This document shows, in pieces, positions 1 to 14,965 of a stretch of DNA of 64,000 nucleotides (position 1 is the stretch's first letter; every line of letters begins with the position of its first letter). The translations under genes were made by a program, and so were the position numbers. This stretch comes from a virus, in the IMG/VR virus record IMGVR_UViG_3300020200_000015, positions 1 to 64,000 of that record; one strand, written 5' to 3'. Under the pieces are notes generated by a model that made no database searches, was not told the DNA's origin, and saw only the letters and a program-made list of their open reading frames with translations.

Positions 1-178
1 TTGGGGTCCATTTCGATGCGCCTACGCCTTCGCCGTCTTTTGTCAGGGACCACAAAGAGGCTCGCCCTAGATAGTCGCGCAGGCCGGTGTCTAGCCACAC
101 CCTGCCACGAAACCAAGCATAGTGCCTTTTGTCATCGTAATAGATTGCCTCATCTACAAACTTGTTGTCGTTGCTCAT
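1..178 (-). CDS. hypothetical protein, cut by the window edge
   Basis: An open frame begins with ATG at 178 and runs off the left end of the window without a stop, giving at least 59 residues. The start MSNDNKFVDEAIYYDDKRH is preceded by a good ribosome binding site (AGGAGA a few bases before ATG), which is the main reason to believe it. The visible part is polar and aromatic (several Tyr and Trp), with no signal peptide or membrane segment. I do not recognise a family. It follows queF in the same direction with a 53-base gap and probably shares its transcript. Confidence 0.55.
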   Translation of the reverse strand, partial: MSNDNKFVDEAIYYDDKRHYAWFRGRVWLDTGLRDYLGRASLWSLTKDGEGVGASKWTP

Positions 179-231: not shown

Positions 232-684
232 TCACATATTGTGCCAGTTCTTCGTGTGCTCAAGGAACACATCGCACTGGAACTTATCGACTGAGGCAAC
301 GTAGCCCTCATTCATATCCCATGTGACAGAAGTCGTCGTGTGAAGACCGCCGCGTGCACCCCAATCGACAGTGATGTTCACCCACTTGGGGAACACAACC
401 TTCACAAACTGCTCAGTGATAGCCTGCGTGGCGGCCTCATGGAAGATGCCAACGCCGTAGAACGAACGCAGGTATAGCTTCCACGCCTTTAGTTCGACGC
501 AGTTAGCGTTCGGGATGTAGCGTAGGATGACACGGCCATAATCAGGCAGGCCGGTCTTAGGGCACACTGAGCTGAACTCAGGATCGATAATCTGCACGAG
601 CTTATCTTCATTTGAAGGGTTCGGCACAACATCGAGAGCGTAGAAGGTCGCCTTGTTGAACGGGATCGGAAAGACTGGTTGCAT
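232..684 (-). CDS. queF: QueF, 7-cyano-7-deazaguanine (preQ0) reductase
   Basis: Predicted NADPH-dependent nitrile reductase that turns preQ0 into preQ1, the last free-base step of the queuosine/7-deazaguanine route. The 150-residue protein has the family signatures: the catalytic cysteine in FSSVCPKTGLPDYG (C41, with acid D48), the QueF motif ELKAWKLYLRSF, the FHE motif just after it, and a WGARGG segment. Length and layout match the short unimodular form (Bacillus YkvM type, about 165 residues). Presence of QueF is notable because phages that stop at preQ0 or divert to archaeosine-like bases do not need it; it implies that preQ1 is the product. The start at 684 lacks a strong ribosome binding site; a short in-frame leader ORF lies directly upstream (691 to 726), so translation may be coupled. 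Confidence 0.9.
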   Translation of the reverse strand: MQPVFPIPFNKATFYALDVVPNPSNEDKLVQIIDPEFSSVCPKTGLPDYGRVILRYIPNANCVELKAWKLYLRSFYGVGIFHEAATQAITEQFVKVVFPKWVNITVDWGARGGLHTTTSVTWDMNEGYVASVDKFQCDVFLEHTKNWHNM

Positions 685-690
685 GGTTGG

Positions 691-726
691 TTATACCTTG
701 AACTGGTCATACAGCGTGGGTTTCAT
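691..726 (-). CDS. possible 11-residue leader peptide before queF
   Basis: ATG at 726 follows AGGAAGCAAAGCA, a good ribosome binding site, and encodes MKPTLYDQFKV before a TAA stop at 691 to 693. It is exactly in frame with queF, whose ATG lies two codons further on. The strong initiation signal belongs to this mini-ORF and not to queF, which has only a distant AAGG. It may be a leader peptide that delivers ribosomes to queF. It could also be the former queF N-terminus interrupted by a stop, or a base-call error. No family can be assigned to so short a peptide. Confidence 0.35.
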   Translation of the reverse strand: MKPTLYDQFKV

Positions 727-769
727 TGCTTTGCTTCCTTTGCTTTGCGAGTTGATCGTGGTCGAGAAC

Positions 770-797
770 ATAGCGGTAGGGTTGCCCCTACCGCTAT
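770..797 (-). terminator. perfect 12-bp hairpin after the DUF932-like gene
   Basis: Bases 770 to 781 pair perfectly with 786 to 797 around a 4-base loop (TTGC). The hairpin starts three bases after the stop codon of the upstream gene and lies before the queF leader. Position suggests a terminator or processing stem, but no T-run follows on the minus strand, so intrinsic termination is uncertain; it could instead stabilise a 3' end or act as an attenuator of queF. Confidence 0.4.
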
Positions 798-800
798 ATC

Positions 801-1892
801 TCAGTTCCAGAACTGGTTGCTGAGCGTCGCAGTCTCCAGAATCGCGCCGCCGACAGCTTGCAGCTTGAGCTTGCTGTCATCGGTCAGCTCTTCTGCGTGC
901 GTACCGGCGCGAGTCACCGCATTGGAGAGACGGTACAAGTTGTTGGACTTGATCGTCTCGCCCTCGACACGCCACCCTTCACGGATGTACTTGTCCTCCA
1001 GGCGGGTGACGGCCATGTCGCGTGCCAGCCGAACCATTGCGCTGTCAGGCTCGTTCGTCTCAGGGTTGACCGAGAGTTCGATCTTGTGCGCCCTCTCGAT
1101 CTGCTCGACGACACGATTGCTGTAGCCGTCTATCATCTCGACACCTTGCCGCAGATTTGACATCGCAGCATCGATCTCACGCGACTCCTTGCCGGTGTGG
1201 CTGATGCTGATGATTACACCCTTGCTCATCGTGGTGGCACCGTTGGTGCATATGAGTCGAAGTGTGTAAGGCGACAGGGTGAGACCTGACGTCTGAGCAA
1301 CGTCGCTATCCTGGAAGCGCACGCCCCACTCGATAGGATCCTTGCTCAGAAGACGCTGGTGCTTCTCACTGTCAATGCCCGTCAAGCCTTCGTCCAGGCG
1401 GCGGGTGATGAAGTCGATGACCAGACCATCGCCATCGAATCGCGTGAGCTTGACCTTCTTGTCTGGGCCAAGCTTGCTGATGAGCGCCTCGATGGAGTTT
1501 TCGTAGGGGATGGGGTTCCAGCTTGCCGACATCATAGCACGCATGACACGCTGGCCATCGCGCTGCTCGAAGCGCAGCAGCGCTTCCTTGTCAGGGCTGA
1601 CGCCAACCCAGTGGTTGAAGTTGAGTGCAGCCAAACCAGGGTCACCCTTCTCGCCGGTCACGAGCTTGGCCAGGTATGCACCGGGCAAGCCGTAGACGAC
1701 GTTTGAGGTCTGGCGGTACACACGGTCATCGAAGGAGTAAACATCCTCCTTTGACGAACCGGGACGACGGACGATGATCTTCCCAGGCTGGGCAGGATCC
1801 ATCAAGAGAGACTTGACGGACACCACCTCGTCTGAGAGATTTGCCTTACGGTTCAGAACCTTCTGGCGGATCTGTTCGAGCGTTGTGGACAT
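801..1892 (-). CDS. DUF932/phage-plasmid-like protein
   Basis: A 363-residue protein with the core signature of DUF932-type (TIGR03299-like) phage and plasmid proteins: the segment PYTLRLICTNGATTMSKG near residue 215 matches their characteristic LRLxCTNG motif. The rest is mixed alpha/beta with no membrane segment or signal peptide. The biochemical role of this family is not established; members often sit near DNA replication or anti-restriction genes. The gene begins at ATG 1892 with a weak AGAGAAAACC leader, so the start is plausible but not certain. A weak sigma-70-like promoter (TTGCCT at 1957 to 1962, TATGGT at 1935 to 1940, minus strand) lies just upstream. It is followed by a strong hairpin and queF. 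Confidence 0.6.
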   Translation of the reverse strand: MSTTLEQIRQKVLNRKANLSDEVVSVKSLLMDPAQPGKIIVRRPGSSKEDVYSFDDRVYRQTSNVVYGLPGAYLAKLVTGEKGDPGLAALNFNHWVGVSPDKEALLRFEQRDGQRVMRAMMSASWNPIPYENSIEALISKLGPDKKVKLTRFDGDGLVIDFITRRLDEGLTGIDSEKHQRLLSKDPIEWGVRFQDSDVAQTSGLTLSPYTLRLICTNGATTMSKGVIISISHTGKESREIDAAMSNLRQGVEMIDGYSNRVVEQIERAHKIELSVNPETNEPDSAMVRLARDMAVTRLEDKYIREGWRVEGETIKSNNLYRLSNAVTRAGTHAEELTDDSKLKLQAVGGAILETATLSNQFWN

Positions 1893-2050
1893 TGGTTTTC
1901 TCTTTGTAGCAGCAAGATTGCTGCGACTACCTGTACCATACAGCGGCGCATGGCAAAGGCAATAGCCAGCAAAACGAAACTTGCTACATCAGTTACGATT
2001 GATCGATCGATTGAACCACAGATATCTCGATTTCGAGAGATATCGAGCAC
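1853..2050 (-). CDS. possible small membrane protein in an intergenic gap
   Basis: GTG at 2050 follows the stop of the upstream gene with no gap and opens a 65-codon frame that ends inside the next gene. It contains a hydrophobic stretch (VASFVLLAIAFAM, then VVAAILLL). In favour: most gaps in this phage are under 30 bases and this would fill one of 158. Against: no ribosome binding site, a 40-base overlap with the next gene, an Arg/Ser-rich tail typical of a shadow frame, and an inverted repeat inside the frame. An internal ATG would give a 32-residue version. I regard it as unproven. Confidence 0.22.
   Translation of the reverse strand: MLDISRNRDICGSIDRSIVTDVASFVLLAIAFAMRRCMVQVVAAILLLQRENQCPQRSNRSARRF
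2021..2044. repeat. inverted repeat, possible operator
   Basis: GATATCTC (2021 to 2028) is repeated inverted at 2037 to 2044, and TCTCGA/TCGAGA forms a second overlapping dyad inside. It lies between the genes ending at 2051 and starting at 1892, next to a GATC-rich patch (GATTGATCGATCGATTG, about 1998 to 2014). There is no T-run, so a protein-binding site is more likely than a terminator. No regulator can be assigned. Confidence 0.35.
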
Positions 2051-2575
2051 TCAAATTTTCGTGCTGAACGGGATAGCATTCCTGACGATCTTCATGTGCT
2101 CGTTCTCAGGAGGATCACACAGCCATTGAGGGTTCGTACCGAAGACATTCAACCCGAGCTGAGACATGTGGCTGACGTAGCTCATATCGTTCCAGCCTAG
2201 CCTTTTCATCTTCTCAATCTTCGGCCACTCGAGCATATCAAACTTGCTGCAATCGATCACAGCAAACTCTCCCCTGTAACCAATAGCGTGCTGCCAACCA
2301 TAAGGCTGCCGAAAGATCTTCGTGGCATCACTCAGGTCGGTAAGCACCTTGCAGCCAACATCAATGTAAACTGCACGACCTTTATAACTGCACAACTCTG
2401 GGATCGAGTACTTCAAGCACTCGTAGGGGGTCTTCCAGAGCTTGTTCGTCCAACCACTTCTAGTATTGAACTTCAAGAAGGTCAGTGACAACTTGCCAGA
2501 ACAGTGAGCTTGCAAGTGGCTGATGAATTCATCCTCTTGCCTCTTCTGACCATAGCTACCAATGAAAACTCTCAC
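2051..2575 (-). CDS. putative glycosyltransferase-like protein (GT8/GT-A-like)
   Basis: A 174-residue protein whose centre reads AVYIDVGCKVLTDLSDA, similar to the YLDxDxxVxxDL strand that carries the DXD metal site of GT8-like nucleotide-sugar transferases. Here the motif is DVG, so the metal site looks altered. The protein is shorter than usual members and may be a minimal GT-A fold. It starts with GTG at 2575 inside a GTGA overlap with the folE stop, so it is cotranslated with queC and folE. That placement inside a deazaguanine operon is the most interesting thing about it. The family call rests on one motif and is uncertain. Confidence 0.4.
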   Translation of the reverse strand: MRVFIGSYGQKRQEDEFISHLQAHCSGKLSLTFLKFNTRSGWTNKLWKTPYECLKYSIPELCSYKGRAVYIDVGCKVLTDLSDATKIFRQPYGWQHAIGYRGEFAVIDCSKFDMLEWPKIEKMKRLGWNDMSYVSHMSQLGLNVFGTNPQWLCDPPENEHMKIVRNAIPFSTKI

Positions 2576-3162
2576 TTCTTGCCCCCATAGACGACTGACA
2601 TGAACTCAGCGCGCACGGCGGGGTCAGACCTGAACTCACCGAGCAGTGCCGATGTCTCCATGGTCGAGTGTGAGTCCTCGACCCCCCTCATATGGGAACA
2701 CATGTGAACCGAATTGTAGACAAGCACGCCAACGCCTTGAGGGTTGAGCGAGTCATTGATTGCATTGGCAATCTGCATAGTCATTCGCTCTTGGATTTGA
2801 AATCTCCGAGAGAAGCAGCGGACCAACCGTGGCAACTTGCTCAGACCAACGACGATCTTAGTCTGTTTATTCGGAATATAACCGATTGCGACTCTGCCGT
2901 GGAACGGAAGCATGTGATGAGCGCACATGCTGAAGTAGTCAATGTCTTTGACTACAATCATCTGGTCGTAGTCTTCTGATGGGAAGCGTGTCTTCAGAAT
3001 CTCTTCGGGATTCTGAGTGTACCCATCAGTCAACTCATAAAACGCCTTCGCAACACGCTTCGGCGTATCGTTGAAGTTAGGATCATTGAGGCTGAATCCT
3101 CTTGAAGAGGAAAGCTCATACAAGATCTGCGATACGTTCCATTGAAGATTGCTGTTTTCCAT
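2572..3162 (-). CDS. folE: GTP cyclohydrolase I (FolE)
   Basis: Predicted to open the ring of GTP to give dihydroneopterin triphosphate, the first step of preQ0 synthesis (shared with folate synthesis). The 196-residue protein has the zinc and active-site motifs MCAHHMLPFHGRVAIGYIP (C80, H82, H83) and CSHMRGVEDSHS (C155), followed by SALLGEF near the C-terminus. Length fits the family. A longer frame extends upstream into queC but is out of frame with it and meaningless; ATG 3162 lies one base after the queC stop and is the best start. It is cotranscribed with queC and overlaps the downstream glycosyltransferase-like gene by GTGA. Confidence 0.93.
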   Translation of the reverse strand: MENSNLQWNVSQILYELSSSRGFSLNDPNFNDTPKRVAKAFYELTDGYTQNPEEILKTRFPSEDYDQMIVVKDIDYFSMCAHHMLPFHGRVAIGYIPNKQTKIVVGLSKLPRLVRCFSRRFQIQERMTMQIANAINDSLNPQGVGVLVYNSVHMCSHMRGVEDSHSTMETSALLGEFRSDPAVRAEFMSVVYGGKK

Positions 3163-3163
3163 G

Positions 3164-4072
3164 TCACTTGATCCACTTTGCGATAGCAGGATCTTCCATA
3201 CCAAGTTCGTTGAAGGCCGTGCGACGCAAGATGCAGCTATCACACTCACCACAACCACCCAGCACGCCGTTGTAGCACGAGTGGGTATCTTCGTACTTGA
3301 CGCCAAGCTCCAAGCCAAGGCGGATGATGTTACGCTTGTTCAGCATCATCAGCGGCGCGTGCACGCCAATCTCGTGCCCGTTGAATACGCCAATAGACAG
3401 AGCATCACGCATTGCGGCAATGAACTCAGGGCGGCAATCAGGGTAGCCGCTGTAGTCAAGAGCATTCACGCCAAGAGCGATGTGCCTGAAGCCAGAGGCA
3501 AAGGCTGACTGCGCAACGGCAGTCATAAAGTACAGGTTGCGACCGGGAACGAATGTTGAAGGGATGCGCTTCGCCATGTCGTCAATCGACTGGTTACGCG
3601 GCACCTTCACTTCATCGCGAGTCAAACTGCTCACTGCAAGCTGATTGATAGGAGTCATATCAACCAATTGATGCGTAACGGGCACATCAAAGCTGTCCCG
3701 GTACGTGTTCAAATAATTGATTGCTCGATCGATCTCGATCTTATGGCGCTGGCCATAATCGAAGATCAAGCAGTGCACACTTCCGAAGAGCTTGCAAGCC
3801 CAGTGAAGAACAGTCGTGCTGTCAAGCCCGCCGCTAAACGACAAGGAGACGCCAGCCTTCTTCAACTTCTCGTAGTACTTGTCGCGTGCGCTACGCTCGA
3901 CAATCATCAAGTTTGCAATGCGATCATCGCGCATATCAGCCAACTTACTTGGCCAGAAATCGCTGAGGTCGCGGTGCATTACCGCAGGGGTCATTATCTT
4001 CTGACCAGTGATCGGACAAATCTGCTTCGGAAGATTTGTGAAAGCTATTTGCTCTAACGCCTTATCATCCAT
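3164..4072 (-). CDS. queC: QueC, 7-cyano-7-deazaguanine synthase, with an N-terminal extension
   Basis: Predicted ATP-dependent enzyme that converts carboxy-deazaguanine to preQ0. The PP-loop SFSGGLDSTT sits at residues 78 to 87 and the zinc cysteines are at C266, C274, C277 and C280 (SCY, CGECDSC, ILRR), as in bacterial QueC. The protein is 302 residues, whereas QueC is usually about 220 to 240. The excess is an N-terminal extension of about 75 residues containing CPITGQKIMTP; it is not the amidotransferase domain of Gat-QueC. A promoter-like sequence lies just upstream (4089 to 4118), which supports the long start. First gene of the queC-folE-GT operon. Confidence 0.93.
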   Translation of the reverse strand: MDDKALEQIAFTNLPKQICPITGQKIMTPAVMHRDLSDFWPSKLADMRDDRIANLMIVERSARDKYYEKLKKAGVSLSFSGGLDSTTVLHWACKLFGSVHCLIFDYGQRHKIEIDRAINYLNTYRDSFDVPVTHQLVDMTPINQLAVSSLTRDEVKVPRNQSIDDMAKRIPSTFVPGRNLYFMTAVAQSAFASGFRHIALGVNALDYSGYPDCRPEFIAAMRDALSIGVFNGHEIGVHAPLMMLNKRNIIRLGLELGVKYEDTHSCYNGVLGGCGECDSCILRRTAFNELGMEDPAIAKWIK

Positions 4073-4088
4073 AGCTAGGTATACTGGT

Positions 4089-4118
4089 ATTATGCTCTAA
4101 TCATAATAACCGTGGCAA
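4089..4118 (-). promoter_or_regulatory. putative sigma-70-like promoter of the queC operon
   Basis: On the minus strand TTGCCA (4113 to 4118) and CATAAT (4089 to 4094) are separated by 18 bases, with the queC ATG 16 bases after the -10. This is one of few gaps in the region. The match is moderate and a phage sigma factor could use something else. Confidence 0.35.
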
Positions 4119-4119
4119 G

Positions 4120-4482
4120 CTAAATGATTGTCGGCCTAAGCCTTATCGTTCCGACAAGTGTGTTGATAGTCTTGCCGCCCAGATTATAAGCCGCCTCTTG
4201 ATAGTAGTTACCAGGCAGCAAGTTCCTGGTATCAACGCCACTGAGAACGACAGTGAAGATACCATTTGCCGGTGTGTCAATTCTGATGCCACTGCCTGGG
4301 TAGCTCTTAGTGAGTACCGGCGTACTGCGATCAGTCGATGCCATCGCCCAGTCGATAGCAGTTACGCTACTGAGATCGATCGCAGACCCGGCGCTGTTTT
4401 GCACAGCAACATCTAATTCACGATACTCACCAGCCTGTATCGTGATCGAAGAGTTTATCTTTCCCACCGCCAAAAGATACAA
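4120..4482 (-). CDS. Ig-like/beta-sandwich protein, possible virion or baseplate-type domain
   Basis: A 120-residue protein rich in beta-strand patterns: AGEYRELDVAVQNSAG, then DLSSVTAIDWAMAS, then a GIRIDTPANGIFTVVLSG repeat-like strand and NLLPGNYYQEAAYNLGG. This arrangement (unfolded N-terminus, DLSxxTxIxW, GxFxVxLSxxDTxxLxPGxYYxEA) is typical of small Ig-like domains found in phage tail and baseplate-upper (BppU-like) proteins. It sits oddly among the modification genes. The first start available is TTG at 4482, four bases after the upstream stop; a GTG fifteen bases on is an alternative. Function inferred from pattern only. Confidence 0.5.
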   Translation of the reverse strand: MYLLAVGKINSSITIQAGEYRELDVAVQNSAGSAIDLSSVTAIDWAMASTDRSTPVLTKSYPGSGIRIDTPANGIFTVVLSGVDTRNLLPGNYYQEAAYNLGGKTINTLVGTIRLRPTII

Positions 4483-4485
4483 GGG

Positions 4486-5004
4486 TCAAATCATCTCAAG
4501 CAGTTGGAGCGTATTCTTCTCGTTGATGAAGAACGCTTCAATCTGATTGACGATTGGTGCGTAATCGCTGATTTGCTTAATGAAAGATACAGCGTCCTTC
4601 AAAAGCAAGCGAGCTTCGATATTTGCCCTCTTAGCAGCATCACGAAACTTCTCTTGTCTCATTCTCTTCTTCTTGCGATTGACCGAATTGACTCTGGTAG
4701 CCCTAGTCTTATCACAAGGCTTGCAATAGGTGTATGGACGACCGTTGTGTCTCCTGTAGAAGTGCAATTTCGCATCTTTCCACTGATTGCAGATGCGACA
4801 GAGCTTCATACCATCAACTACTGCCGGCTCACGGGACCAAGAGTTTCTCATCTCGATCCCTGATTTGTGAAGATATCTAGCGATTGTTGAATTACTGAGA
4901 TTGAAATGATCTGCTACTGCTGGGATTGTGAGACGCTTATCGCTCAGATAGTATTCAGGAATGAGCTTTGCCAGCTCAGCCCGCCTAGCGCGTGTGTGAG
5001 CCAT
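4486..5004 (-). CDS. HTH plus zinc-finger DNA-binding protein
   Basis: A 172-residue protein starting at ATG 5004 in a TAATG overlap with queE. Residues about 20 to 50 (YYLSDKRLTIPAVADHFNLS, NSTIARYLHKSGI) form a helix-turn-helix, followed by a CRICNQW...YCKPCDKTRATR four-cysteine zinc module like those found on phage HNH-type and small DNA-binding proteins, then a basic KKKRMRQEK stretch and a helical C-terminus. No HNH catalytic residues are visible, so a regulator is more likely than a nuclease. It could control the modification operon it sits in. Confidence 0.6.
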   Translation of the reverse strand: MAHTRARRAELAKLIPEYYLSDKRLTIPAVADHFNLSNSTIARYLHKSGIEMRNSWSREPAVVDGMKLCRICNQWKDAKLHFYRRHNGRPYTYCKPCDKTRATRVNSVNRKKKRMRQEKFRDAAKRANIEARLLLKDAVSFIKQISDYAPIVNQIEAFFINEKNTLQLLEMI

Positions 5005-5789
5005 TAGGTTCCGGGCCTGTTCCCGTAGGCGAGGACATGGATTTGCGGCGTGATGATTGTACGCTTCCACACCTCGCCCATCTTGCAGCGAAGCTTATAG
5101 CTTTCCAGCAGCCAGTGGAGTGAAGCTGACAAGTTGTTGCGGATAGTAGGTGCATCAAGATGCTGGGTGATTCTGTTCCCAGCCATCGTATCGCTCATAT
5201 TGATCGTGCTGTTGGTCACGATATTGGTATTGAACGGCTGCAAGACCATCGTGCAAGCGCCATTGAGCTGCACGTTGACAGCATGGGCGTAGTCGAGATC
5301 TTCGTTACTTGAGATCAAGCACTTGACTTGATCTTGTGTACGCATGTTTTCGATACCCTTAAAGTATCCCTTCATCTGTTCGCCGGTACAGGGAGTCTTT
5401 GCGTCAGGCGAGTACAGGTCGGACCTCTCATGCACAACCTTGTCGTAGAAACGACCGCTCGTTTCAATGTGAACAAGCAATCCATTAGCATTGAACTGCT
5501 CAATCATAGTGAGTAGCTGTTTGGTGTAGAGCATTGGCTCGCCACCAGTCACGCTCACCCACTTGATACCATACTTCTGGCAGGCATCGAGCGCCCTGCC
5601 GATGACAAGCTCAAGATCAACAATCTGATTCTGGCTGGCATTCCAAGAATACTCGCTGTCGCAGAATGAACAGCGCAACGGGCAGCCGCCAACTCTGATG
5701 AAGTAGTACGGGTGGCCGATGTTGATACCTTCACCCTGCACAGAGACGAACTCTTCAAGAACTGGCAGCTTGTTGGACGGCAGACCCAT
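5004..5789 (-). CDS. queE: QueE, 7-carboxy-7-deazaguanine synthase (radical SAM)
   Basis: Predicted radical SAM enzyme that rearranges carboxy-tetrahydropterin into carboxy-deazaguanine. The 261-residue protein has the N-terminal EEFVSVQGEG motif, the Fe-S cluster cysteines C36, C40 and C43 (GGCPLRCSFCDSEYSW, CxxxCxxC spacing) and the SAM-binding VTGGEP. These fit QueE rather than other radical SAM families. The next gene overlaps its stop by TAATG. A strong hairpin (5791 to 5837) lies immediately before its ATG and could regulate it. It works with QueD (6644 to 7075) and QueC (3164 to 4072), which flank it. Confidence 0.93.
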   Translation of the reverse strand: MGLPSNKLPVLEEFVSVQGEGINIGHPYYFIRVGGCPLRCSFCDSEYSWNASQNQIVDLELVIGRALDACQKYGIKWVSVTGGEPMLYTKQLLTMIEQFNANGLLVHIETSGRFYDKVVHERSDLYSPDAKTPCTGEQMKGYFKGIENMRTQDQVKCLISSNEDLDYAHAVNVQLNGACTMVLQPFNTNIVTNSTINMSDTMAGNRITQHLDAPTIRNNLSASLHWLLESYKLRCKMGEVWKRTIITPQIHVLAYGNRPGT

Positions 5790-5790
5790 G

Positions 5791-5837
5791 GATGCTACTA
5801 CGTGTAGTAGTCAAAACTCATACTACACTCAAGCATC
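5791..5837 (-). promoter_or_regulatory. stem-loop in the queE leader
   Basis: On the minus-strand transcript GTGTAGTA pairs with TACTACAC (5821 to 5828 with 5802 to 5809) around an 11-base loop, and an outer GATGCT/AGCATC pair (5832 to 5837 with 5791 to 5796) closes it. The structure ends two bases before the queE ATG and would hide the ribosome binding region. No T-run follows. It may be a translational control element or the 3' stem of the upstream gene. It does not match the preQ1-I consensus that I know. Confidence 0.45.
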
Positions 5838-5840
5838 TAG

Positions 5841-6608
5841 CTAAAGTGCGCTACGCCACTTGTCAGGTATCTGCTCGTTCGGCATACCGATTGAATTGAA
5901 TTGATTGTTAATGGCCGATTCTACGTTCCGGACATCATACCTTCCGTCAGTGTGGCGACGATTCAGCCAACGACGACGAAGTAATTCTCTGCACGAATAG
6001 TGCATGTGAATGAGACGCACATCTTCACGCTCAGTTGGAACAACTTCTCTAACCCAATTGTTAGTCCACTTAGTAGTGTGCCACCCAGCCCCCCATCCAG
6101 GATCACAACTGGTGATCGCTACCTTGCAGTAATGCTGCCAGTTACGATGCCAAGTCATTCTCTGAGTTAACCACGGCCTCTTCGAAGTATCCAGAGGAAC
6201 GGTGCCAACATCAACGACATCGTAGCCAGAACACTGCACAAACTCTCCATCAAATCGATCGATGAATTCGCGCAAGCCGCCAGAGTAAATTTCAGGGTCT
6301 GCAACGATGAACTCATCTGCATCAGCCCGCAATACGTATTTATATCCTGATGCAAGTAATTGCTTGATGATTCTCATCGTATGGCCGCTGATGTGGCCGT
6401 CATCAACCTGACCGCGCATTTCGCCCTCAGGCGTTTTACTGTTAATCACTTCAACATTACATTTGAATCCTTCAAATAAATTGCCATCTGATCCATCATC
6501 GAGCATCCAGATATCTTTCTGGTCGAAGTGATCAGAATAATAGTCATACCACATGCGGGTGAAGTCAACTTCATTGTAGAAGCACCCGACAGCAGCACAC
6601 TTGCCCAT
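5841..6608 (-). CDS. family 2-like glycosyltransferase
   Basis: A 255-residue protein with a GT-A layout: N-terminal AAVGCFYNEVDFTRMWYDYY, the strand DIWMLDDGSDG, and the metal-binding motif YKYVLRADADEFIV (DAD near residue 97). The N-terminus resembles the YNExxxxxxWxxYY pattern of GT2/GT92-type enzymes that act on surface glycans. No membrane segment, so it should be cytoplasmic. It sits between queD and queE. The acceptor cannot be told from sequence: capsid or tail glycans, host surface, or modified DNA are all open. Confidence 0.72.
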   Translation of the reverse strand: MGKCAAVGCFYNEVDFTRMWYDYYSDHFDQKDIWMLDDGSDGNLFEGFKCNVEVINSKTPEGEMRGQVDDGHISGHTMRIIKQLLASGYKYVLRADADEFIVADPEIYSGGLREFIDRFDGEFVQCSGYDVVDVGTVPLDTSKRPWLTQRMTWHRNWQHYCKVAITSCDPGWGAGWHTTKWTNNWVREVVPTEREDVRLIHMHYSCRELLRRRWLNRRHTDGRYDVRNVESAINNQFNSIGMPNEQIPDKWRSAL

Positions 6609-6643
6609 GCTGCTTGATACAACTAATTCACAAACGCTTACTA

Positions 6644-7075
6644 TTACTTCTCAGTGAAGACTGCGTAGCAGTTTGGCGTTTCCCACACCAGTACAGAATT
6701 CACTTTGACGCCATCCATCGCAAGAAGCTCTTTGGCCTTATAGTAGAGCAGCTCAGCGATATTCTCAGCAGTAGGGTTCTTGTCCATGATGAAGTGCCTA
6801 TGCCCACTCATAGAACCAGCACGCCACTCATAGGCAATCGGATCATCCCTGAAGATCAACATGCCATGGTCAAGGTTGTCATCAATCCACTTGCCGAAAA
6901 CGCCTTTGATGACTGAGAAATCAACCACCCTACCGAGCTTGTCGAGGCTGCCAGTGCATTCAACCTCGACAACATATCGATGCCCGTGGATGTGGTTGCA
7001 CTTTGATTCGTGCTGATAGACGCGGTGGCCAGCGTCGAATTCAATCTTACGGGTGATCGTGTATGTGGCAGTCAC
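6644..7075 (-). CDS. queD: QueD, 6-carboxy-5,6,7,8-tetrahydropterin synthase
   Basis: Predicted to convert dihydroneopterin triphosphate (from FolE) to carboxy-tetrahydropterin. The 143-residue protein belongs to the PTPS/QueD family: zinc ligands H17, H30 and H32 with catalytic C26 (FDAGHR and CNHIHGH), then DNLDHGMLI, and the PTAENIA motif. Length is normal. The start is GTG at 7075 in a GTGA overlap with the upstream gene, so the two are translationally coupled. With FolE, QueE and QueC it completes the route to preQ0. Confidence 0.93.
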   Translation of the reverse strand: MTATYTITRKIEFDAGHRVYQHESKCNHIHGHRYVVEVECTGSLDKLGRVVDFSVIKGVFGKWIDDNLDHGMLIFRDDPIAYEWRAGSMSGHRHFIMDKNPTAENIAELLYYKAKELLAMDGVKVNSVLVWETPNCYAVFTEK

Positions 7076-7353
7076 TTACCAAGCTCCAAGTTGGTGGGGT
7101 CGATTTCACTGGTTACGCCAAGTACCCAACGCAGAACTGCGTAAATGCAAGCCTCATATGACTGCTTGTCAACAAGACTCTCAAGCTGCTCGTTCATCGT
7201 CTTGAGACGAGCAGGCTTGATATCCGGCGCTAGGCCAGCGTTAGCTAGCCCGATGTTCTGAACAAGCTGCTTGATCTTCTCAGCACGCCTCTGCAAAGCT
7301 GAAGAAGAGATAGCAGCCTGATGAAAGATCTCTTGCTCTGTTCTAATCTTCAT
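7072..7353 (-). CDS. hypothetical helical protein
   Basis: A 93-residue, mainly helical protein (heptad-like SSSALQRRAEKIKQLVQNIG) overlapping its neighbours at both ends (11 bases with the methyltransferase, GTGA with queD). No cysteine cluster, membrane segment or known motif. The tight coupling to queD suggests a role in the same pathway, but no function can be claimed. Confidence 0.6.
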   Translation of the reverse strand: MKIRTEQEIFHQAAISSSALQRRAEKIKQLVQNIGLANAGLAPDIKPARLKTMNEQLESLVDKQSYEACIYAVLRWVLGVTSEIDPTNLELGK

Positions 7354-7897
7354 AATTCTCTGAATCCTTCACCCAAATACCAAGGCCGGCACCGCCCTGA
7401 TCAACTTCGATCTTCTTGCCTGGCAATTCATTGAAGAACTTACGCACTGACGGGAAAGAGTTGATGTCGTGGAACATGATGACACCACCCGACAGCACAA
7501 CAGGTGACCAAGCATCGAAGTCCCTCTTCACACCATCGTAGCTATGGTCGCCATCGATGTGAAGAATGTCAATGTCGAGGTAGTTCTCAGGTTGACGCCA
7601 CATCGCAAGAACCTGAACGCTATCACCTTGAATCAACTTAGCGTTCGGGAATGATGCGATGTTGCTCAACACATGGCTCTTAGCTTGCTGAGCAGTACCA
7701 TACTCAACATAGGCGTCGATTCCGAATACACTCGCCTTCGGAAAATCACGCGCCATAGTGAAGAAGCTATAGCCGTAGTCAACTCCGATCTCAACGATGC
7801 AGCGCACATCATCAAGATCTTTGATGACAGTCGAAAGAGCCTGCTTGTACTCATTAGCAGCACTCGTCCAAGCACTAGGGCAGTCGAAAGCGTTCAT
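7343..7897 (-). CDS. class I SAM-dependent methyltransferase (Methyltransf_24-like)
   Basis: A 184-residue protein with the Rossmann methyltransferase pattern: motif I VEIGVDYGYSFFTMA, acidic VFGIDAYVEYG, LIQGDSVQVL, and the signature ILHIDGDHSYDGVKRDFDAW followed by GGVIMFHDI. This last block is typical of Methyltransf_24/CmcI-like enzymes found in glycan and antibiotic clusters. The start is taken at ATG 7897 (TGATG overlap with the upstream glycosyltransferase) rather than the TTG one codon before. Its coupling to glycosyltransferases suggests that it methylates a sugar, but a nucleobase acceptor is not excluded. Confidence 0.8.
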   Translation of the reverse strand: MNAFDCPSAWTSAANEYKQALSTVIKDLDDVRCIVEIGVDYGYSFFTMARDFPKASVFGIDAYVEYGTAQQAKSHVLSNIASFPNAKLIQGDSVQVLAMWRQPENYLDIDILHIDGDHSYDGVKRDFDAWSPVVLSGGVIMFHDINSFPSVRKFFNELPGKKIEVDQGGAGLGIWVKDSENYED

Positions 7898-8715
7898 CAA
7901 ATCACACTCGCTGGTAGACGGTTCTTGAACTTCTTGTACATGACTTCGTGTGCGCGGCGATGGATACTGAGGTCAGTTGTACCCATTGCCTCAGCCCACT
8001 TCTCTCGCGTGCTCGTTACGCCGCCATGGTGTACGCAGTCGATGTCGAGTACGTAGTTCTTGTAGCCGCCAAAGTGCGAGTCAAGGCAGATATCGTTGTC
8101 GTAGTTGTGGTGCGGTGGGTAGCTCTCGTAATCGAACTTGCCCTTAAGAGCGTTGTCGATCATGTGCCTTGACACTACGAGTGTAAATCCGTCAAGTGTC
8201 ACAACGCGCTCGTATCTACCGCTCACAACACGACCACCAGCACCGGCCATACTCGGCACGGTGAAACAATTCCACCTCATGAGCTGCGTGAAGTGATATG
8301 GGGCGCGATAGATGTCTGGAGTACCAAGCCCTTTCGCTCCGAACATGCCACAGACACCTGGCGGCTTGCCGTTGATAAGCTCAAGCTCTGCTAGCAAATT
8401 CTCAATCGCCACATCCCATCCGTACATCTTCATCTCGACATCATTGTGCGAGTAGAAGATGTAGTCTGTCTTCACATACTCGAGAGCTTGCTGGAACGTT
8501 CTGTAAACGCCAGTGTTTGACTGATTACGAACACAGTCAACGTCGTACTCCTTCTTCCAATCCTTGTAGAACTGCTGCTCAACCAACGGAACGGTACTGC
8601 CGTTGTCGATAAAGAGGATCTTGAACGAACTCTTCGCGTGGTCGAACCAAGACTGGACGTACTTAGCCGTGGCTTCATGCTGATTCAGGATCGGGATTAC
8701 GACCGTAAAACACAT
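7897..8715 (-). CDS. family 2-like glycosyltransferase
   Basis: The protein starts MCFTVVIPILNQ at ATG 8715, preceded by AAAGGGTGA; a longer frame upstream (to 8742) lacks a binding site. It has a GT2 core: VVIPILNQHEATAKYVQSW, the strand KILFIDNGST, and YIFYSHNDVEM where the DXD equivalent is HND. A later VVTLDGFTLVVSR and a C-terminal HHNYDNDICLD segment fit the acceptor half. It is soluble and about 272 residues. It is coupled by TGATG to the downstream methyltransferase, which suggests consecutive action on the same glycan. Confidence 0.75.
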   Translation of the reverse strand: MCFTVVIPILNQHEATAKYVQSWFDHAKSSFKILFIDNGSTVPLVEQQFYKDWKKEYDVDCVRNQSNTGVYRTFQQALEYVKTDYIFYSHNDVEMKMYGWDVAIENLLAELELINGKPPGVCGMFGAKGLGTPDIYRAPYHFTQLMRWNCFTVPSMAGAGGRVVSGRYERVVTLDGFTLVVSRHMIDNALKGKFDYESYPPHHNYDNDICLDSHFGGYKNYVLDIDCVHHGGVTSTREKWAEAMGTTDLSIHRRAHEVMYKKFKNRLPASVI

Positions 8716-8775
8716 GTACGTCACCCTTTCTAATCTGCTCAATCAGTCGCAATACATACTGAAAGAACTCAGGTC

Positions 8776-9726
8776 TCAGACGAGTTCCTCGAAGAGTTCT
8801 AACATCTGGGTAGCTCTCGCCACCGTAGAGTGATACTTTTGAGCGTGTCTTATCGCAGCTCCAGTTAGTCTTTTCCACCATCCCTCGTTTTTGACAATCT
8901 CAACTAGCAGCGCTTCCATGTGCTGCCAGTTATGGAAATACAATGCGTGCCTGTGCGGCTCTGGCATGAACCTCATGTGCAGAACCTTGCTTATGTCAGG
9001 CGTACAAACAGCAGCTCCAAAACCGATAGCTTCCCAATACCTAAGCGTGTCAATGCCAGCGCCGGGCACGCTAACAATGCACTTCGATCGCCTCATGAGC
9101 GATCTGTAATCGGGAATCGAAAGAGGCTGACCATCGTTGGGTGCGTTGGCAACAATGTTCAATCCAGTCCTCTTAGCGATTGCATTGAGGTGATCAACGC
9201 ACTCTTGTCGCAGCTTGCTACTGCCTCCATAGGCTACGAAGGAAACATCAACATCTCTCTTCTCATACGGCTGCGGCTGGTGATCGAAATGAAACTGGTA
9301 AACGCCAAACTGAAAGCTTCTGACGTTGTGCCAAACTAAGTCGTTCACTTCAGGGTACCTCAGCTCACGCTTCAGGTACAGCTTGAACATTGATGGATCG
9401 ACTAGATAGCAGTTGCTATCATGGCCATCAAGAAAGATACCCTTCTTGTGCAGCAGCTCTCTCCTACCTTCGAAGTAATCGAAGTTCTCTAAGAACTTCA
9501 TATCACCTCCAGACGACAGTAAGATGACATCAGCCTCAGGGATGACATCCTCAATAGCCGTCTTACTCAACAGATCAAGTTTTTCAATCTGAGAGCCATG
9601 ATGCACAATGGCATTTGTGCACCAGAATTCTTTGATTGCGCAAGTCTTCCTGAGAAGCCAGAGTCCCTCAGTAATCTGATTAGAAGAGTAGTCAAATCCC
9701 TCTGGGGCGAGATAGAGAATTTTCAT
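8776..9726 (-). CDS. GT-B-type glycosyltransferase
   Basis: A 316-residue protein starting MKILYLAPEGFDYSSNQI, a GT-B style N-terminal strand. The C-terminal half carries SKCIVSVPGAGIDTLRYWEAIGFGAAVCTP, which resembles the donor-binding region of GT1/GT4 or CgeB-like enzymes (xxPGxGxxxxRxxEAxxxG). No transmembrane segment. It overlaps the upstream GT2 gene by four bases. Donor and acceptor are unknown. Confidence 0.6.
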   Translation of the reverse strand: MKILYLAPEGFDYSSNQITEGLWLLRKTCAIKEFWCTNAIVHHGSQIEKLDLLSKTAIEDVIPEADVILLSSGGDMKFLENFDYFEGRRELLHKKGIFLDGHDSNCYLVDPSMFKLYLKRELRYPEVNDLVWHNVRSFQFGVYQFHFDHQPQPYEKRDVDVSFVAYGGSSKLRQECVDHLNAIAKRTGLNIVANAPNDGQPLSIPDYRSLMRRSKCIVSVPGAGIDTLRYWEAIGFGAAVCTPDISKVLHMRFMPEPHRHALYFHNWQHMEALLVEIVKNEGWWKRLTGAAIRHAQKYHSTVARATQMLELFEELV

Positions 9727-10664
9727 TCCATCTTAACAGTTTCAACGGTCAGATTGTCAAGGAAGTTGATGGTTTCAGCAGTGATCAAACCATCACTGAT
9801 TGCAAGGTCGTTAACCTGCTTGACGGTAGGATGCTTGACACTCGGGTTCTTAGCAATCCAGTTGGCGTAGCGAGCATCGGCACCCTCTTGGGCAACCGTG
9901 CGCGTCAAGTTATTCCTCATGAACTTGATTCTATTCTCCCTGAACTTAACGTGGGTCACAAGCTCAGGATTCTCATACCGTGTGCGACTTGCAATGTGGC
10001 TGTACGGTGCAAGGTTAGTGCTGAACGCCTTATAGCCAGTCAGAAGAATACGCCAGTGAGTGTCGTTGTCCTCAAAGAACGCAGGCTGGTAATCCTCGCA
10101 GATGTAGCCGATTTTCTCAATGAAAGACGGCTCAATCATGTAGCATGAGAAGTCTGGGTTCTCTCTTTTTGATGACTCTGGCCTGATAATCGCAAGGTCA
10201 GATGGGTTCCTAGTCATGTTGGCAGCAGTGACCATCACAGTTTCAGGCACCTCTGCCTTGATAGTTTTAAAGCCTTCGATCATCCCATCAATGGTGTATT
10301 GTCCGAAGGCAATGTCATTGTTGCAGATCAGGATCTTGGTGTAGCCATTCTCAACACCGTACTTGATGATCTGGTTCCAACCCACGGCTACACCGGCATT
10401 ACAGCCGTTGAACGCCATGTAGAACCCATCGATATTTGGATTGTTCTTATTCCACTTCTCAATCTGCTCGACATTCTCAGGCTTTGAGCCGTTATCAATG
10501 TAGAGGAAGGTCACATGCCGTGCCTTTGTCTTGACTGACTCGATGCAGCGGCGCGTGTACGTAAGGCAGTTCACGCCAAGCGTACCGATGAGCACTCGCT
10601 CATCGATATCACGAACTACCTTGTGATCAACCTTAACAGCAGTCAAGCCGCGATGAATAACCAT
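9723..10664 (-). CDS. family 2-like glycosyltransferase
   Basis: A 313-residue GT2-like protein: VLIGTLGVNCLTYTRRCIESV, VTFLYIDNGSKPENVEQI, CNAGVAVGWNQIIKYG and the ILICNNDIAFG strand, where NND takes the DXD place as in many GT2 enzymes that use NDD/NND. YQPAFFEDNDTHWRILLTGYK matches the ED catalytic-base region. It is upstream of three sugar-related genes (8776, 7897, 7343) with overlaps or short gaps, forming one glycan operon. Confidence 0.75.
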   Translation of the reverse strand: MVIHRGLTAVKVDHKVVRDIDERVLIGTLGVNCLTYTRRCIESVKTKARHVTFLYIDNGSKPENVEQIEKWNKNNPNIDGFYMAFNGCNAGVAVGWNQIIKYGVENGYTKILICNNDIAFGQYTIDGMIEGFKTIKAEVPETVMVTAANMTRNPSDLAIIRPESSKRENPDFSCYMIEPSFIEKIGYICEDYQPAFFEDNDTHWRILLTGYKAFSTNLAPYSHIASRTRYENPELVTHVKFRENRIKFMRNNLTRTVAQEGADARYANWIAKNPSVKHPTVKQVNDLAISDGLITAETINFLDNLTVETVKME

Positions 10665-12080: not shown

Positions 12081-12193
12081 TTCTTTCTCCTCAGAAGAGC
12101 GATGGCCAAGAAGCAGCAAACAATCATCAACGCTAGCACGGCAGTATCGAATAGATCAGCATAATCACCAAGCAAACTTTCGATGAGTTCCAT
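12077..12193 (-). CDS. 38-residue single-span membrane protein
   Basis: ATG 12193 overlaps the stop of the upstream gene (TGATG). The product has an acidic N-terminus (MELIESLLGDYADLFD), one hydrophobic span (AVLALMIVCCFLAIALL) and a basic end RRKK, so N-out/C-in topology is expected. Its stop overlaps the GTG of the exported protein downstream by four bases, and its last codons contain that gene's ribosome binding site, so the two are coupled. Size and topology fit a phage small membrane protein (holin, inhibitor or spanin-like), but no specific function is shown. Confidence 0.65.
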   Translation of the reverse strand: MELIESLLGDYADLFDTAVLALMIVCCFLAIALLRRKK

Positions 12194-12609
12194 CAGACGG
12201 GCCAAACGTATTCCAAGGTGCTAGGCTCAGACCAACCGAACTTACCATACCAGATCGGATCCTTGCGAATCAGGTTGGAACGATGGCTGGCATGGACATC
12301 ATCTCTACCAATCCACGGAGGAAGAGTAACCGTGCTAGGGAGGTCATAAAGCTTCATGGTATTGTTGAATCCACGGCTGACCCATTCATTGATGGAAAGG
12401 TTGTGGTAGAGCTTGAGAGCATCAAGGTATCCACGCCACATGGTACGGGCAGGATGATTAGCCCACCCGATCTTGGCATTAGGATCTACCTCAAGCTTCA
12501 GGGTGCTATTAACAAGCTGCATGGCTTCTAGACGTTGCTTGCCAAGACGCTTGTTGTCCAAAACCTTGAGGGATTCGTAAAAGGACGGATAGGGCAGAAA
12601 GGTTTGCAT
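12193..12609 (-). CDS. MSMEG_6728-like/pyrimidine dimer DNA glycosylase-type protein
   Basis: A 138-residue protein beginning MQTFLPYPSFYESLKVLDNK, RLGKQRLEAMQ, followed by WANHPARTMWRGYLDALKLY and EWVSRG. This is the signature of a small family (MSMEG_6728-like) annotated as pyrimidine dimer DNA glycosylases in bacteria and phages; the repair function is inferred by annotation history and not by a motif I can verify. It is preceded by a strong extended -10 promoter (12619 to 12646) and an AGGA binding site four bases before the ATG. Confidence 0.72.
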   Translation of the reverse strand: MQTFLPYPSFYESLKVLDNKRLGKQRLEAMQLVNSTLKLEVDPNAKIGWANHPARTMWRGYLDALKLYHNLSINEWVSRGFNNTMKLYDLPSTVTLPPWIGRDDVHASHRSNLIRKDPIWYGKFGWSEPSTLEYVWPV

Positions 12610-12728: not shown

Positions 12729-13658
12729 TCAGCTACCCCACAAAACAATGTGGCCAAACGTCTCATTCTTAATATGCATTCTTATCTCGCGCTCTCTATC
12801 ACGAAGATCTTCATGAATACCAACAGTGAGCGCATCACTAGATGTCAGTCCGAGCGACGCGGCTGACTTCGATGTCCACTCTAACTTGGCGATGTCATCG
12901 CCAAACTGACTATCAAAGTAAGATGGTATATTACTCTTATCGATGAAGATCGATTCACCGATGCTAGTATTAGCCTGCGTTAAAACGACTGGACATCCAA
13001 ATGCCCAATTGCGACCATACTGCATTCTTCCAATGCTAACGGTTGGCATCTCATTTTGATCCTCAGGTTCAGTTGCGCGAACCGTCATGTGAGGATACCA
13101 GCAGTGCAGCGGCTTGAATGGGTGCACGCCACAGAAATATCTATCGCCCCCGATGAATAAATACGGGCAAGAGCACCTGCCGCTGAGCTCGTATTCATCA
13201 ACATTTTGCTTTACGTACAGCTTCGAGAGTATGTTGTGCTTATGGTTGAATCCATCAACCGTAATGTGCACCGACAACTCTTCAAGACTAGCTAAAAGAT
13301 CTTCGCGATTTTTATCAAACCTCTTAGCGCTATCAGCGCCAAACCTTTCAGCAATGTCTTTGGCATCGTAATTAACAATGCGCGACCTATCGTACTCAGT
13401 ATAGACCAAGTCAAAAGGCACGCGACAGCAATTGCCAGCGCCGTGACAATCGTCCAGGCGAGTATAGAGAGTAGGACTGATCGAAACACGGCCAGGCACA
13501 CGGTATACTTTTTCAAACAAAACATACCTAGTGCCGTCAACATCAGTCTTAGCTACTTCAACTTTCGTGTTGTACTTAGCATACACGAATAAGTAGTGCA
13601 GCAGCTTTTCGATCGAACCTTTGAGCTGCTCTCTATGAGCTGAAGAACTGAGAAGCAT
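12729..13658 (-). CDS. YkgJ-like CxxCxxCC zinc/iron-chelating protein
   Basis: A protein of about 309 residues with two cysteine groups typical of the YkgJ family: DDCHGAGNCCRVPFDLVYTE near the first third, and GRCSCPYLF followed by YFCGVHPFKPLHCWYPHM in the middle. The family is predicted to bind zinc or an iron-sulfur cluster, and its role is unknown. The chosen start, ATG 13658, lies 26 bases inside the upstream zinc-ribbon gene; an in-frame upstream extension exists but has no convincing start. The C-terminal third shows no recognisable domain. Confidence 0.55.
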   Translation of the reverse strand: MLLSSSAHREQLKGSIEKLLHYLFVYAKYNTKVEVAKTDVDGTRYVLFEKVYRVPGRVSISPTLYTRLDDCHGAGNCCRVPFDLVYTEYDRSRIVNYDAKDIAERFGADSAKRFDKNREDLLASLEELSVHITVDGFNHKHNILSKLYVKQNVDEYELSGRCSCPYLFIGGDRYFCGVHPFKPLHCWYPHMTVRATEPEDQNEMPTVSIGRMQYGRNWAFGCPVVLTQANTSIGESIFIDKSNIPSYFDSQFGDDIAKLEWTSKSAASLGLTSSDALTVGIHEDLRDREREIRMHIKNETFGHIVLWGS

Positions 13659-13908
13659 TGTTAACCCAAATAGAGTTGCAGGACTTGCAGTAAAAGATTG
13701 CCTTCGGCAGATCACCTTCCTGCATTACATCAGTAGAATCACAGTTAGGGCAGCTACCAATCGATTCGGATACCGAGACTGGCGCTCTTGGGTCGTCCGT
13801 ATTAGCCCTTACCATAGCCTCGATTATATCAGTTAGTCTAGATAGGTGGTACGCTATCGTAGCCAGACTGATTCTGATTGTCGGCAACCCCTCGTTCTCG
13901 TCGTTCAT
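13633..13908 (-). CDS. small zinc-ribbon protein
   Basis: A 91-residue protein ending in a zinc ribbon (CPNCDSTDVM ... FYCKSCNSIWV). ATG 13908 overlaps the upstream sigma-like gene by 71 bases, which is long for this genome; a shorter start at ATG 13815 would give 60 residues, remove the overlap and keep the whole ribbon, but has only GAGG very close to it. The ribbon suggests nucleic acid or protein binding. Confidence 0.55.
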   Translation of the reverse strand: MNDENEGLPTIRISLATIAYHLSRLTDIIEAMVRANTDDPRAPVSVSESIGSCPNCDSTDVMQEGDLPKAIFYCKSCNSIWVNNASQFFSS

Positions 13909-14965
13909 CTATCCAAGCTCTTTTAATCATTGCAAGCAGCATAGCTTGACGGTGGATGTCACTAGAAACAACCCCGTTTATGTGGTTAGGCATACTTGGC
14001 AAGAGGCGTGTGAATGGCTCAATTGCTGTTGTCTCAACGAAAGCCTCACGCTTAGACAAGTACCTCATGATGATTACATACGCAGGATTCTCGACATCCA
14101 CCTCATTCATCAACACATAGTTGATATCCGACTGCCTGAATAGATCGCCAAGCTTTGCTTCGACCTTATCTAAGTCGCTGTAACTCTGGTATGTTTTTGA
14201 CCAGATGGCATCCTTCTTCTTGTCTTGTGAGTCGAAGAGAGCGATAGCGACCTCACCCCTATCGGTGTAGATGCCGCAGATCCTGTAGTTGACTCTCTCA
14301 CCCATGAGCGTAAGACTGTACTTCAGCCTAGTTACGAATCTGGCAGTATTCTCTTTCAACCAAGTGTAATCAGTCTGCTTGTAGCCGATCTTCTCGCCAA
14401 TGTCGGCCCATGTCATTTGCCTGACACGGTAAAGGTAACACTCAAGCCACAAGCGATCATTTGAATCCTTGGGGATCGAGTCAAAAATCTTACGCAGCAA
14501 CTCGCCTTGGCGACCGTCCTCAATCAGCGAAAGAAGGTCATTGGCAAACTCACCTTCTTGCGGGAGAATATCCTCCATGCCCTCCACGGTCTGGCTGAGC
14601 ATCATCAAGTACGTCTTACCATGCTCATGGTCAACCATCTGCTTCATATCGGTAACCTTCTTCAAGAGAAAGTCAGCCTCGCCACGAAGCCTGAGCGAGA
14701 AGTACGATATGACTCTACCGTCGTTCGCCTGTTCGGGCAACTTGAAGTTGCCAATGATTTCGATTATACGCGGCACCAAACCGCATTCGATGTCTTCAAG
14801 ATCTTCACTGGGTAGCCAGTGAAACATCCTTTTGTATTCACGCAACCTGCCGGAGATTATCTTCTGAATCTTCTTGTCTTGGACGAACAGCCATCCGGCA
14901 TGGCTATCGCCGCTCTGAAACCTCTTGATGAGGTAATACAGCTCTGAATCAGGCTCCGTAACCAC
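13838..14965 (-). CDS. sigma-70-like factor with a large C-terminal domain
   Basis: A 375-residue protein. Residues 1 to 120 resemble sigma region 2 (YYLIKRFQSGDSHAGWLFV, SEDLEDIECGLV, ISYFSLRLRGEADFLLKK), and around residues 185 to 225 there is a region 4-like helix-turn-helix (RQMTWADIGEKIGYKQTDYT). The remaining 150 residues (from about 228) are not known in sigma factors and contain an alpha/beta segment and then helices. It probably directs host RNA polymerase to a phage promoter class; the extra domain may regulate it. Confidence 0.5.
   Translation of the reverse strand: MVTEPDSELYYLIKRFQSGDSHAGWLFVQDKKIQKIISGRLREYKRMFHWLPSEDLEDIECGLVPRIIEIIGNFKLPEQANDGRVISYFSLRLRGEADFLLKKVTDMKQMVDHEHGKTYLMMLSQTVEGMEDILPQEGEFANDLLSLIEDGRQGELLRKIFDSIPKDSNDRLWLECYLYRVRQMTWADIGEKIGYKQTDYTWLKENTARFVTRLKYSLTLMGERVNYRICGIYTDRGEVAIALFDSQDKKKDAIWSKTYQSYSDLDKVEAKLGDLFRQSDINYVLMNEVDVENPAYVIIMRYLSKREAFVETTAIEPFTRLLPSMPNHINGVVSSDIHRQAMLLAMIKRAWIDERRERGVADNQNQSGYDSVPPI

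What the first reader, a model, noticed from the sequence alone, without database searches (positions are those of the whole stretch)
232..7075. Complete phage route from GTP to preQ1, without a visible DNA transglycosylase
FolE, QueD, QueE, QueC and QueF are all intact in 7 kb. QueF is informative: it makes preQ1, the base reported in DNA of haloarchaeal virus HVTV-1, whereas phages such as 9g carry an archaeosine-like base. I find no DpdA-like protein in the window. It may lie outside, or the pathway may use another inserter. The predicted modified base would protect against restriction.
Basis: partly seen in the sequence, partly recalled or inferred. Interest (0 to 1): 0.75.

Follow-up and report, generated by a model that had tools for sequence, protein, structure and literature searches.

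The report
Phage preQ1 DNA-modification cassette, contig cut
This uncultured phage carries all five enzymes that turn GTP into the modified guanine base preQ1, plus a likely sixth helper gene, and the enzyme that would put the base into its DNA is probably missing only because the sequence fragment ends exactly where related viruses keep that gene.

Summary
FolE, QueD, QueE, QueC and a QueF with reductase motifs are intact on the minus strand (232-7075). No DpdA is detectable in the window or the other 19 kb of the 82,960-bp record, using several transglycosylase models and profile comparison.

The "missing inserter" is most likely a contig-edge effect. QueF ends 231 bp from the left edge. A co-directional gene with a Shine-Dalgarno sequence starts there and runs off the contig. 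In IMG/VR, 44 non-redundant QueF loci carry at least two of QueC/D/E. Of these, 40 have a transglycosylase, 36 within 1.6 kb of QueF, 29 directly downstream. Three of the four exceptions are fragments of 18 kb or less or end at QueF; the fourth is 38 kb. Nanhaiviruses show the same order, QueC-FolE-QueF-small ORF-DpdA.

ORF 12729-13715 is a divergent member of a cysteine-cluster (PF03692-like) family. Of 41 viral contigs with this family, 32 also carry QueF and at least 32 a transglycosylase. This favours a DNA role, and perhaps a base modified beyond preQ1.

Verdict: a real, mostly ordinary dPreQ1-type anti-restriction cassette in a divergent phage lineage. The DNA modification itself is inferred, not shown.

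The parts
2..178 (-). Gene downstream of QueF, cut by the contig edge (starts MSNDNKF after GGAGAAGAA; at least 59 codons). Marks that the QueF operon continues beyond the record.
   Evidence: ORF list; sequence around the start
232..684 (-). QueF, 7-cyano-7-deazaguanine reductase (preQ0 to preQ1), 150 aa; C41, D48, E64-L-K-A-W-K-L-Y motif, E83
801..1892 (-). Uncharacterised phage protein (phrog_1362) between QueF and FolE; no evidence that it belongs to the pathway
2051..2575 (-). Uncharacterised 174-aa protein; perhaps glycosyltransferase-like by eye only
   Evidence: no family hit
2572..3162 (-). FolE, GTP cyclohydrolase I (196 aa from the ATG at 3162)
3164..4072 (-). QueC, 7-cyano-7-deazaguanine synthase (SGGLDS motif and four-Cys zinc site)
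4486..5070 (-). HNH / endonuclease VII-like protein lying between QueC and QueE
5004..5789 (-). QueE, radical-SAM 7-carboxy-7-deazaguanine synthase
5841..6608 (-). Glycosyltransferase family 2-like protein between QueE and QueD (PF13704, just under its cut-off)
6644..7075 (-). QueD, 6-carboxytetrahydropterin synthase
12729..13715 (-). Divergent member of the cysteine-cluster (PF03692/YkgJ-like) family that accompanies QueF and DpdA in viral deazaguanine cassettes; candidate preQ1-modifying enzyme
   Evidence: phmmer to L083 4.7e-7; HMM without it 3.7e-4, best of 951 frames; hhalign 94.9%, E 4.7e-8

Best explanation
This is a phage 7-deazaguanine DNA-modification cassette of the QueF (dPreQ1) type on an incomplete contig. 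FolE, QueD, QueE and QueC make preQ0 from GTP, and QueF reduces it to preQ1. A DpdA-type transglycosylase, whose gene lies just beyond the left edge, swaps preQ1 for guanine in replicated phage DNA. The cysteine-cluster protein at 12729-13715 probably modifies the base further or assists insertion. [quoted passage not shown] Shown here: the genes, their motifs, the truncation and the association statistics. Inferred: the off-contig DpdA, the base in DNA, and protection.
For: Five intact enzymes (alignments 35, 84, 85). QueF ends 231 bp from the edge and is followed by a cut co-directional gene. Of 44 non-redundant QueF loci with at least two of QueC/D/E, 37 have a transglycosylase in the locus, 36 within 1.6 kb and 29 directly downstream; three more have one elsewhere on the contig. 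Nanhaiviruses have QueC-FolE-QueF-small ORF-DpdA. The window encodes a remote homologue of a gene family whose carriers have QueF in 32 of 41 contigs and a transglycosylase in at least 32; in Mycobacterium phage Knocker it sits between DpdA and QueC. dPreQ1 was measured in QueF viruses Dp-1, HVTV-1 (PMC6884629) and 6E351A (PMC12028318). No tRNA genes were found.
Against: The transglycosylase gene itself was not seen. No contig overlapping or extending the left or right end was found, and no close relative of the que region exists in the collections (best QueC identity 42%). The cysteine-cluster match is remote and lies 5.6 kb from QueD. No chemistry can be tested here.
Confidence: 0.82

Rival explanations
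1. The phage makes preQ1 only to feed the host TGT and raise queuosine in host tRNA. There is no DNA modification and no phage transglycosylase.
For: No transglycosylase in 83 kb. A tRNA role was proposed for phages with the preQ0 genes but no DpdA (PMC6884629) and for Pan1 (PMC9837993).
Against: In related loci, QueF with the pathway comes with a transglycosylase in 40 of 44 non-redundant cases. Pan1 itself encodes a DpdA beside QueF. The window also carries a homologue of a gene family that tracks QueF/DpdA viruses. The contig is cut where DpdA is expected.
Confidence: 0.09
2. The base goes into DNA without a phage DpdA, through a host DpdA or an unrelated inserter.
For: No DpdA found in the 83 kb. 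A host DpdA was proposed for HVTV-1 in 2019 (PMC6884629).
Against: HVTV-1 has a gene (HVTV_69) beside FolE that resembles transglycosylase-like proteins near QueF in L060, L072, L078, L079, L114 and L122, so the precedent is weak. Recalled, not readable here: Cui et al. 2023 report transglycosylases in all such viruses.
Confidence: 0.05
3. A new, unrecognisably divergent transglycosylase is present within the 83 kb.
For: Several ORFs are unannotated (e.g. 801-1892, 13838-14965); two transglycosylase-like groups in other loci were missed by the first DpdA model.
Against: hhalign of 94 ORFs of at least 150 aa against the DpdA profile peaked at 2.7% probability, and models of three groups found nothing significant. 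The control HVTV_69 also failed against that profile, so this test has limited power.
Confidence: 0.04

Closest known systems
Nanhaivirus cassette (Dinoroseobacter phages R5C and R26L, Pseudanabaena phage Pan1)
   Same: QueD ... QueC-FolE-QueF in the same order and strand, followed by a small ORF; QueF 34-37% identical; Pan1 also has the cysteine-cluster gene
   Different: DpdA follows in those genomes but lies beyond the edge here, if present; here QueE, glycosyltransferase and HNH genes are interleaved; the rest of the phage is unrelated
Streptococcus phage Dp-1 (dPreQ1, about 1.7% of G)
   Same: FolE, QueD, QueE, QueC, QueF in one operon; QueF with the same catalytic residues
   Different: DpdA and QueT are in the Dp-1 operon; not seen here
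Halovirus HVTV-1 (dPreQ1, about 30% of G)
   Same: Five-enzyme pathway with QueF and no conventional DpdA hit
   Different: QueF only 32% identical; HVTV_69 is a candidate divergent transglycosylase next to FolE
Mycobacterium phage Knocker
   Same: QueC, QueD, QueE, FolE, a QueF match and the cysteine-cluster gene in one cassette
   Different: DpdA present next to the cysteine-cluster gene; compact 5.5-kb operon

Membership tests
Type I QueF nitrile reductase | Catalytic Cys and Asp, and the QueF motif E(S/L)K(S/A)xK(L/Y)(Y/F/W) | tested here: met
   C41, D48, E64-L-K-A-W-K-L-Y invariant or matching; TIGR03139 111.2 bits against cut-off 86.9
preQ0 pathway (FolE, QueD, QueE, QueC) | All four enzymes as intact frames with family-level matches | tested here: met
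   QueD and QueE pass Pfam but fall below the NCBIfam equivalog cut-offs
Phage DpdA-dependent 7-deazaguanine DNA modification | A DpdA-family transglycosylase gene | tested here: inconclusive
   Absent from the 83-kb fragment, but the fragment ends at the expected site
Phage DpdA-dependent 7-deazaguanine DNA modification | 7-deazaguanine nucleoside in virion DNA | not testable with these tools
   needs LC-MS of virion or sample DNA
Queuosine tRNA pathway | TGT, QueA, QueG/QueH or tRNA genes on the phage | tested here: not met
   TGT PF01702 absent and no tRNA genes. QueA and QueG/H were not searched; a host could supply them
Cysteine-cluster (PF03692/YkgJ-like) cassette family | Conserved cysteines and GR.W signature, homology to cassette members | tested here: met
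   C96, C97, C183, C195, C205, G234, R235, W237 conserved; hhalign 94.9%, E 4.7e-8. No Pfam hit on its own
DpdM (dPreQ1 methyltransferase, Cui et al. 2023) | Identity of this cysteine-cluster family with DpdM | not tested
   The paper is not held; the link is recollection only

The most novel reading that the evidence does not exclude
The phage carries a guanine hypermodified beyond preQ1: the cysteine-cluster enzyme (12729-13715) alkylates the aminomethyl group, and one of the glycosyltransferases interleaved with the que genes (5841-6608, possibly 2051-2575) adds a sugar, giving a glycosylated 7-deazaguanine in DNA, which I know of in no phage. Glycosyltransferases are not a regular part of such cassettes (only 3 of 26 related records have a GT2), so the sugar step would be specific to this virus.
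Probability: 0.06. Interest if true: 0.75.

Novelty: new member of a known kind. Interest (0 to 1): 0.36.

Why it matters
It adds a deep-branching, uncultured phage lineage to the dPreQ1 DNA-modification viruses and explains an apparent gap (no inserter) as a probable truncation. It also shows that a poorly described cysteine-cluster family tracks QueF across very different viruses, including this one, so the family is a good target for finding what happens to preQ1 after insertion. As a method point, PF01702 does not detect phage DpdA, so 'no TGT' calls based on Pfam are unsafe.

Tried and rejected
PF01702 as a DpdA test: rejected because Pan1 DpdA has no hit to it. Sister contigs covering the left edge: none by QueF, by the left or right 25-mers, or by QueC alignment. 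The near-identical contigs L002-L004 do not cover the que region. Host assignment through the replication polymerase in bacterial genomes: nothing. Glycosyltransferases as regular cassette members: not supported (no homologue of 5841-6608 in the 80 QueF loci). My first DpdA4-like model drifted onto ParB-like domains, so only full-length members were counted. Cui et al. 2023 (NAR gkad657) and the 2024 MMBR review are not held; what I recall of them is marked as recollection.

Full report
WHAT IS THERE. The window is the first 64,000 bases of an 82,960-bp linear IMG/VR virus record; I read the remaining 18,960 bases as L001. Every gene I identified with confidence reads on the minus strand. In transcription order the cassette is QueD (7075-6644), a glycosyltransferase-like gene (6608-5841), QueE (5789-5004), an HNH/endonuclease VII-like gene (5070-4486), an unknown gene (4482-4120), QueC (4072-3164), FolE (3162-2572), an unknown gene (2575-2051), a phrog_1362 protein (1892-801), QueF (684-232), and then a gene that runs off the left edge.

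ENZYME INTEGRITY. QueF aligns with the QueFs of R5C, Pan1, R26L, Dp-1, phi38:2 and HVTV-1, keeping C41, D48, the E-L-K-A-W-K-L-Y motif, E83 and RGG. It passes the preQ1 synthase equivalog cut-off (111.2 against 86.9 bits). QueC has SGGLDS and four cysteines. QueE has CxxxCxxC and TGGEP. FolE and QueD have their metal-binding Cys/His residues by eye. QueF and QueF-like amidotransferases are hard to separate by sequence (PMC6884629), but viruses Dp-1 and HVTV-1 with this type of QueF contain dPreQ1, as does Vibrio phage 6E351A, about 15% of dG (PMC12028318).

IS THERE AN INSERTER? None is found in the 83 kb by PF01702, phrog_887 and phrog_7068, a 14-sequence DpdA alignment, an iterated DpdA model, hhalign of 94 ORFs of at least 150 aa (best 2.7%), or models of two further transglycosylase-like groups. 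PF01702 has no power here, since Pan1 DpdA gives no hit, and hhalign has limited power, since HVTV_69 also fails.

WHY THE ABSENCE IS PROBABLY AN EDGE EFFECT. QueF ends at 232. About 54 bases on, after a GGAGAAGAA Shine-Dalgarno sequence, a co-directional gene (MSNDNKF...) starts and is cut at the edge. In nanhaiviruses the order is QueC-FolE-QueF-65-aa ORF-(cysteine-cluster)-DpdA. I scanned IMG/VR with the QueF alignment (80 loci). After clustering QueF at 85% identity, 44 loci have at least two of QueC/D/E. Of these, 37 have a transglycosylase in the locus, 36 within 1.6 kb of QueF, and 29 directly downstream. Three of the seven others have a DpdA elsewhere on their contig. The last four are L031 (contig ends at QueF), L063 (5.9 kb), L074 (18 kb) and L085 (38 kb). 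So 40 of 44 have a transglycosylase, and the commonest place is exactly what this record lacks. I could not find a contig that bridges the gap.

ORF 12729-13715 has no Pfam or NCBIfam hit. It is a remote homologue of a cysteine-cluster family (PF03692-like) represented by Pan1 gp55 and phi38:2 gp53, which lie between QueF and DpdA. phmmer finds it against L083, where the homologue directly precedes DpdA and QueF (4.7e-7). A family model built without the window ranks it first of 951 reading frames (3.7e-4), and hhalign gives 94.9% and E 4.7e-8. C96, C97, C183, C195, C205 and G-R-x-W are conserved. Searching IMG/VR with this family, without requiring QueF, gave 41 contigs. QueF is on 32 (29, three more). 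A transglycosylase is on at least 32 (23, seven plus two from the further groups). In Mycobacterium phage Knocker the gene sits between DpdA and QueC. The family therefore looks like a preQ1-associated cassette component. From memory, Cui et al. 2023 described a dPreQ1 methyltransferase, DpdM, of unusual fold; I could not read that paper, so whether this family is DpdM is untested. A structure prediction failed (pLDDT 38.8).

MECHANISM. Most likely, FolE, QueD, QueE and QueC make preQ0, QueF makes preQ1, an off-contig DpdA exchanges it for guanine in phage DNA, and the cysteine-cluster protein acts on the base or on its insertion. The modified DNA resists restriction, as shown for other deazaguanine phages (PMC6884629). 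The genes and their context are shown here; the DpdA, the base in DNA and the protection are inferred.

RIVALS. Feeding host queuosine remains possible (9%), because no inserter is visible in this fragment. A DpdA-independent inserter (5%) has lost its main precedent: HVTV-1 carries HVTV_69 beside FolE, 33% identical over 141 residues (E 1.5e-23) to ParB-fused proteins near QueF in several contigs. A cryptic transglycosylase inside the 83 kb gets 4%.

VIRUS. The phage has a portal, terminase, DnaB-like helicase, primase, UvsX-like recombinase, sliding clamp and a split replicative polymerase. One sister contig (L092) is syntenic over the replication module at 31-62% protein identity. No isolated phage is close: the best terminase match is 26.7%.

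VERDICT. A genuine preQ1 cassette, a new member of a known kind. The apparent lack of a transglycosylase is most simply a truncation. Interest is moderate, mainly for the cysteine-cluster association.

Noticed in passing
L008:17244-18404 (HVTV-1 gene 69); L060:13478-14713; also L072, L078, L079, L114, L122: HVTV_69, beside FolE, is homologous (33%, E 1.5e-23) to ParB-domain-fused transglycosylase-like proteins close to QueF in these metagenomic contigs, so HVTV-1 probably encodes its own divergent inserter, and the group extends beyond HVTV-1.
   Followed up: partly
L103:11699-13051; also L104, L107, L109, L110, L120, L134: A further transglycosylase-like group (about 450 aa, DSGGLQI motif), found with the cysteine-cluster gene and mostly with QueC and QueF; not matched by the DpdA model.
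   Followed up: partly
22976-25138 and 28115-28984: DNA polymerase III alpha is split into a separate PHP-domain protein and a catalytic protein, about 3 kb apart with other genes between; both match consecutive parts of phrog_405, and the split is conserved in sister contig L092.
   Followed up: partly
L001:6640-10571 (record 70640-74571): Seven copies of a roughly 135-bp block (61-100% identical), 466-959 bp apart, lie among small ORFs, perhaps a repeated promoter/leader unit.
   Followed up: partly
L001:8539-8916 (record 72539-72916): A tandem array of about fifteen 25-bp units in a gene-poor stretch; possibly an origin or binding-site array.
   Followed up: no
12193-12609: Pyrimidine-dimer DNA glycosylase of the T4 endonuclease V type (PF03013, 1.4e-22) between the que region and the cysteine-cluster gene.
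   Followed up: no
5841-10664 and L001:2490-3227: Glycosyltransferase-like genes and a Methyltransf_24 methyltransferase next to the que cassette; such genes are rare in related que-carrying phages.
   Followed up: partly
L006, L007, L010 (nanhaivirus QueC): QueC proteins of R5C, Pan1 and R26L lack the zinc-site cysteines kept in the window, Dp-1 and phi38:2 QueC.
   Followed up: no
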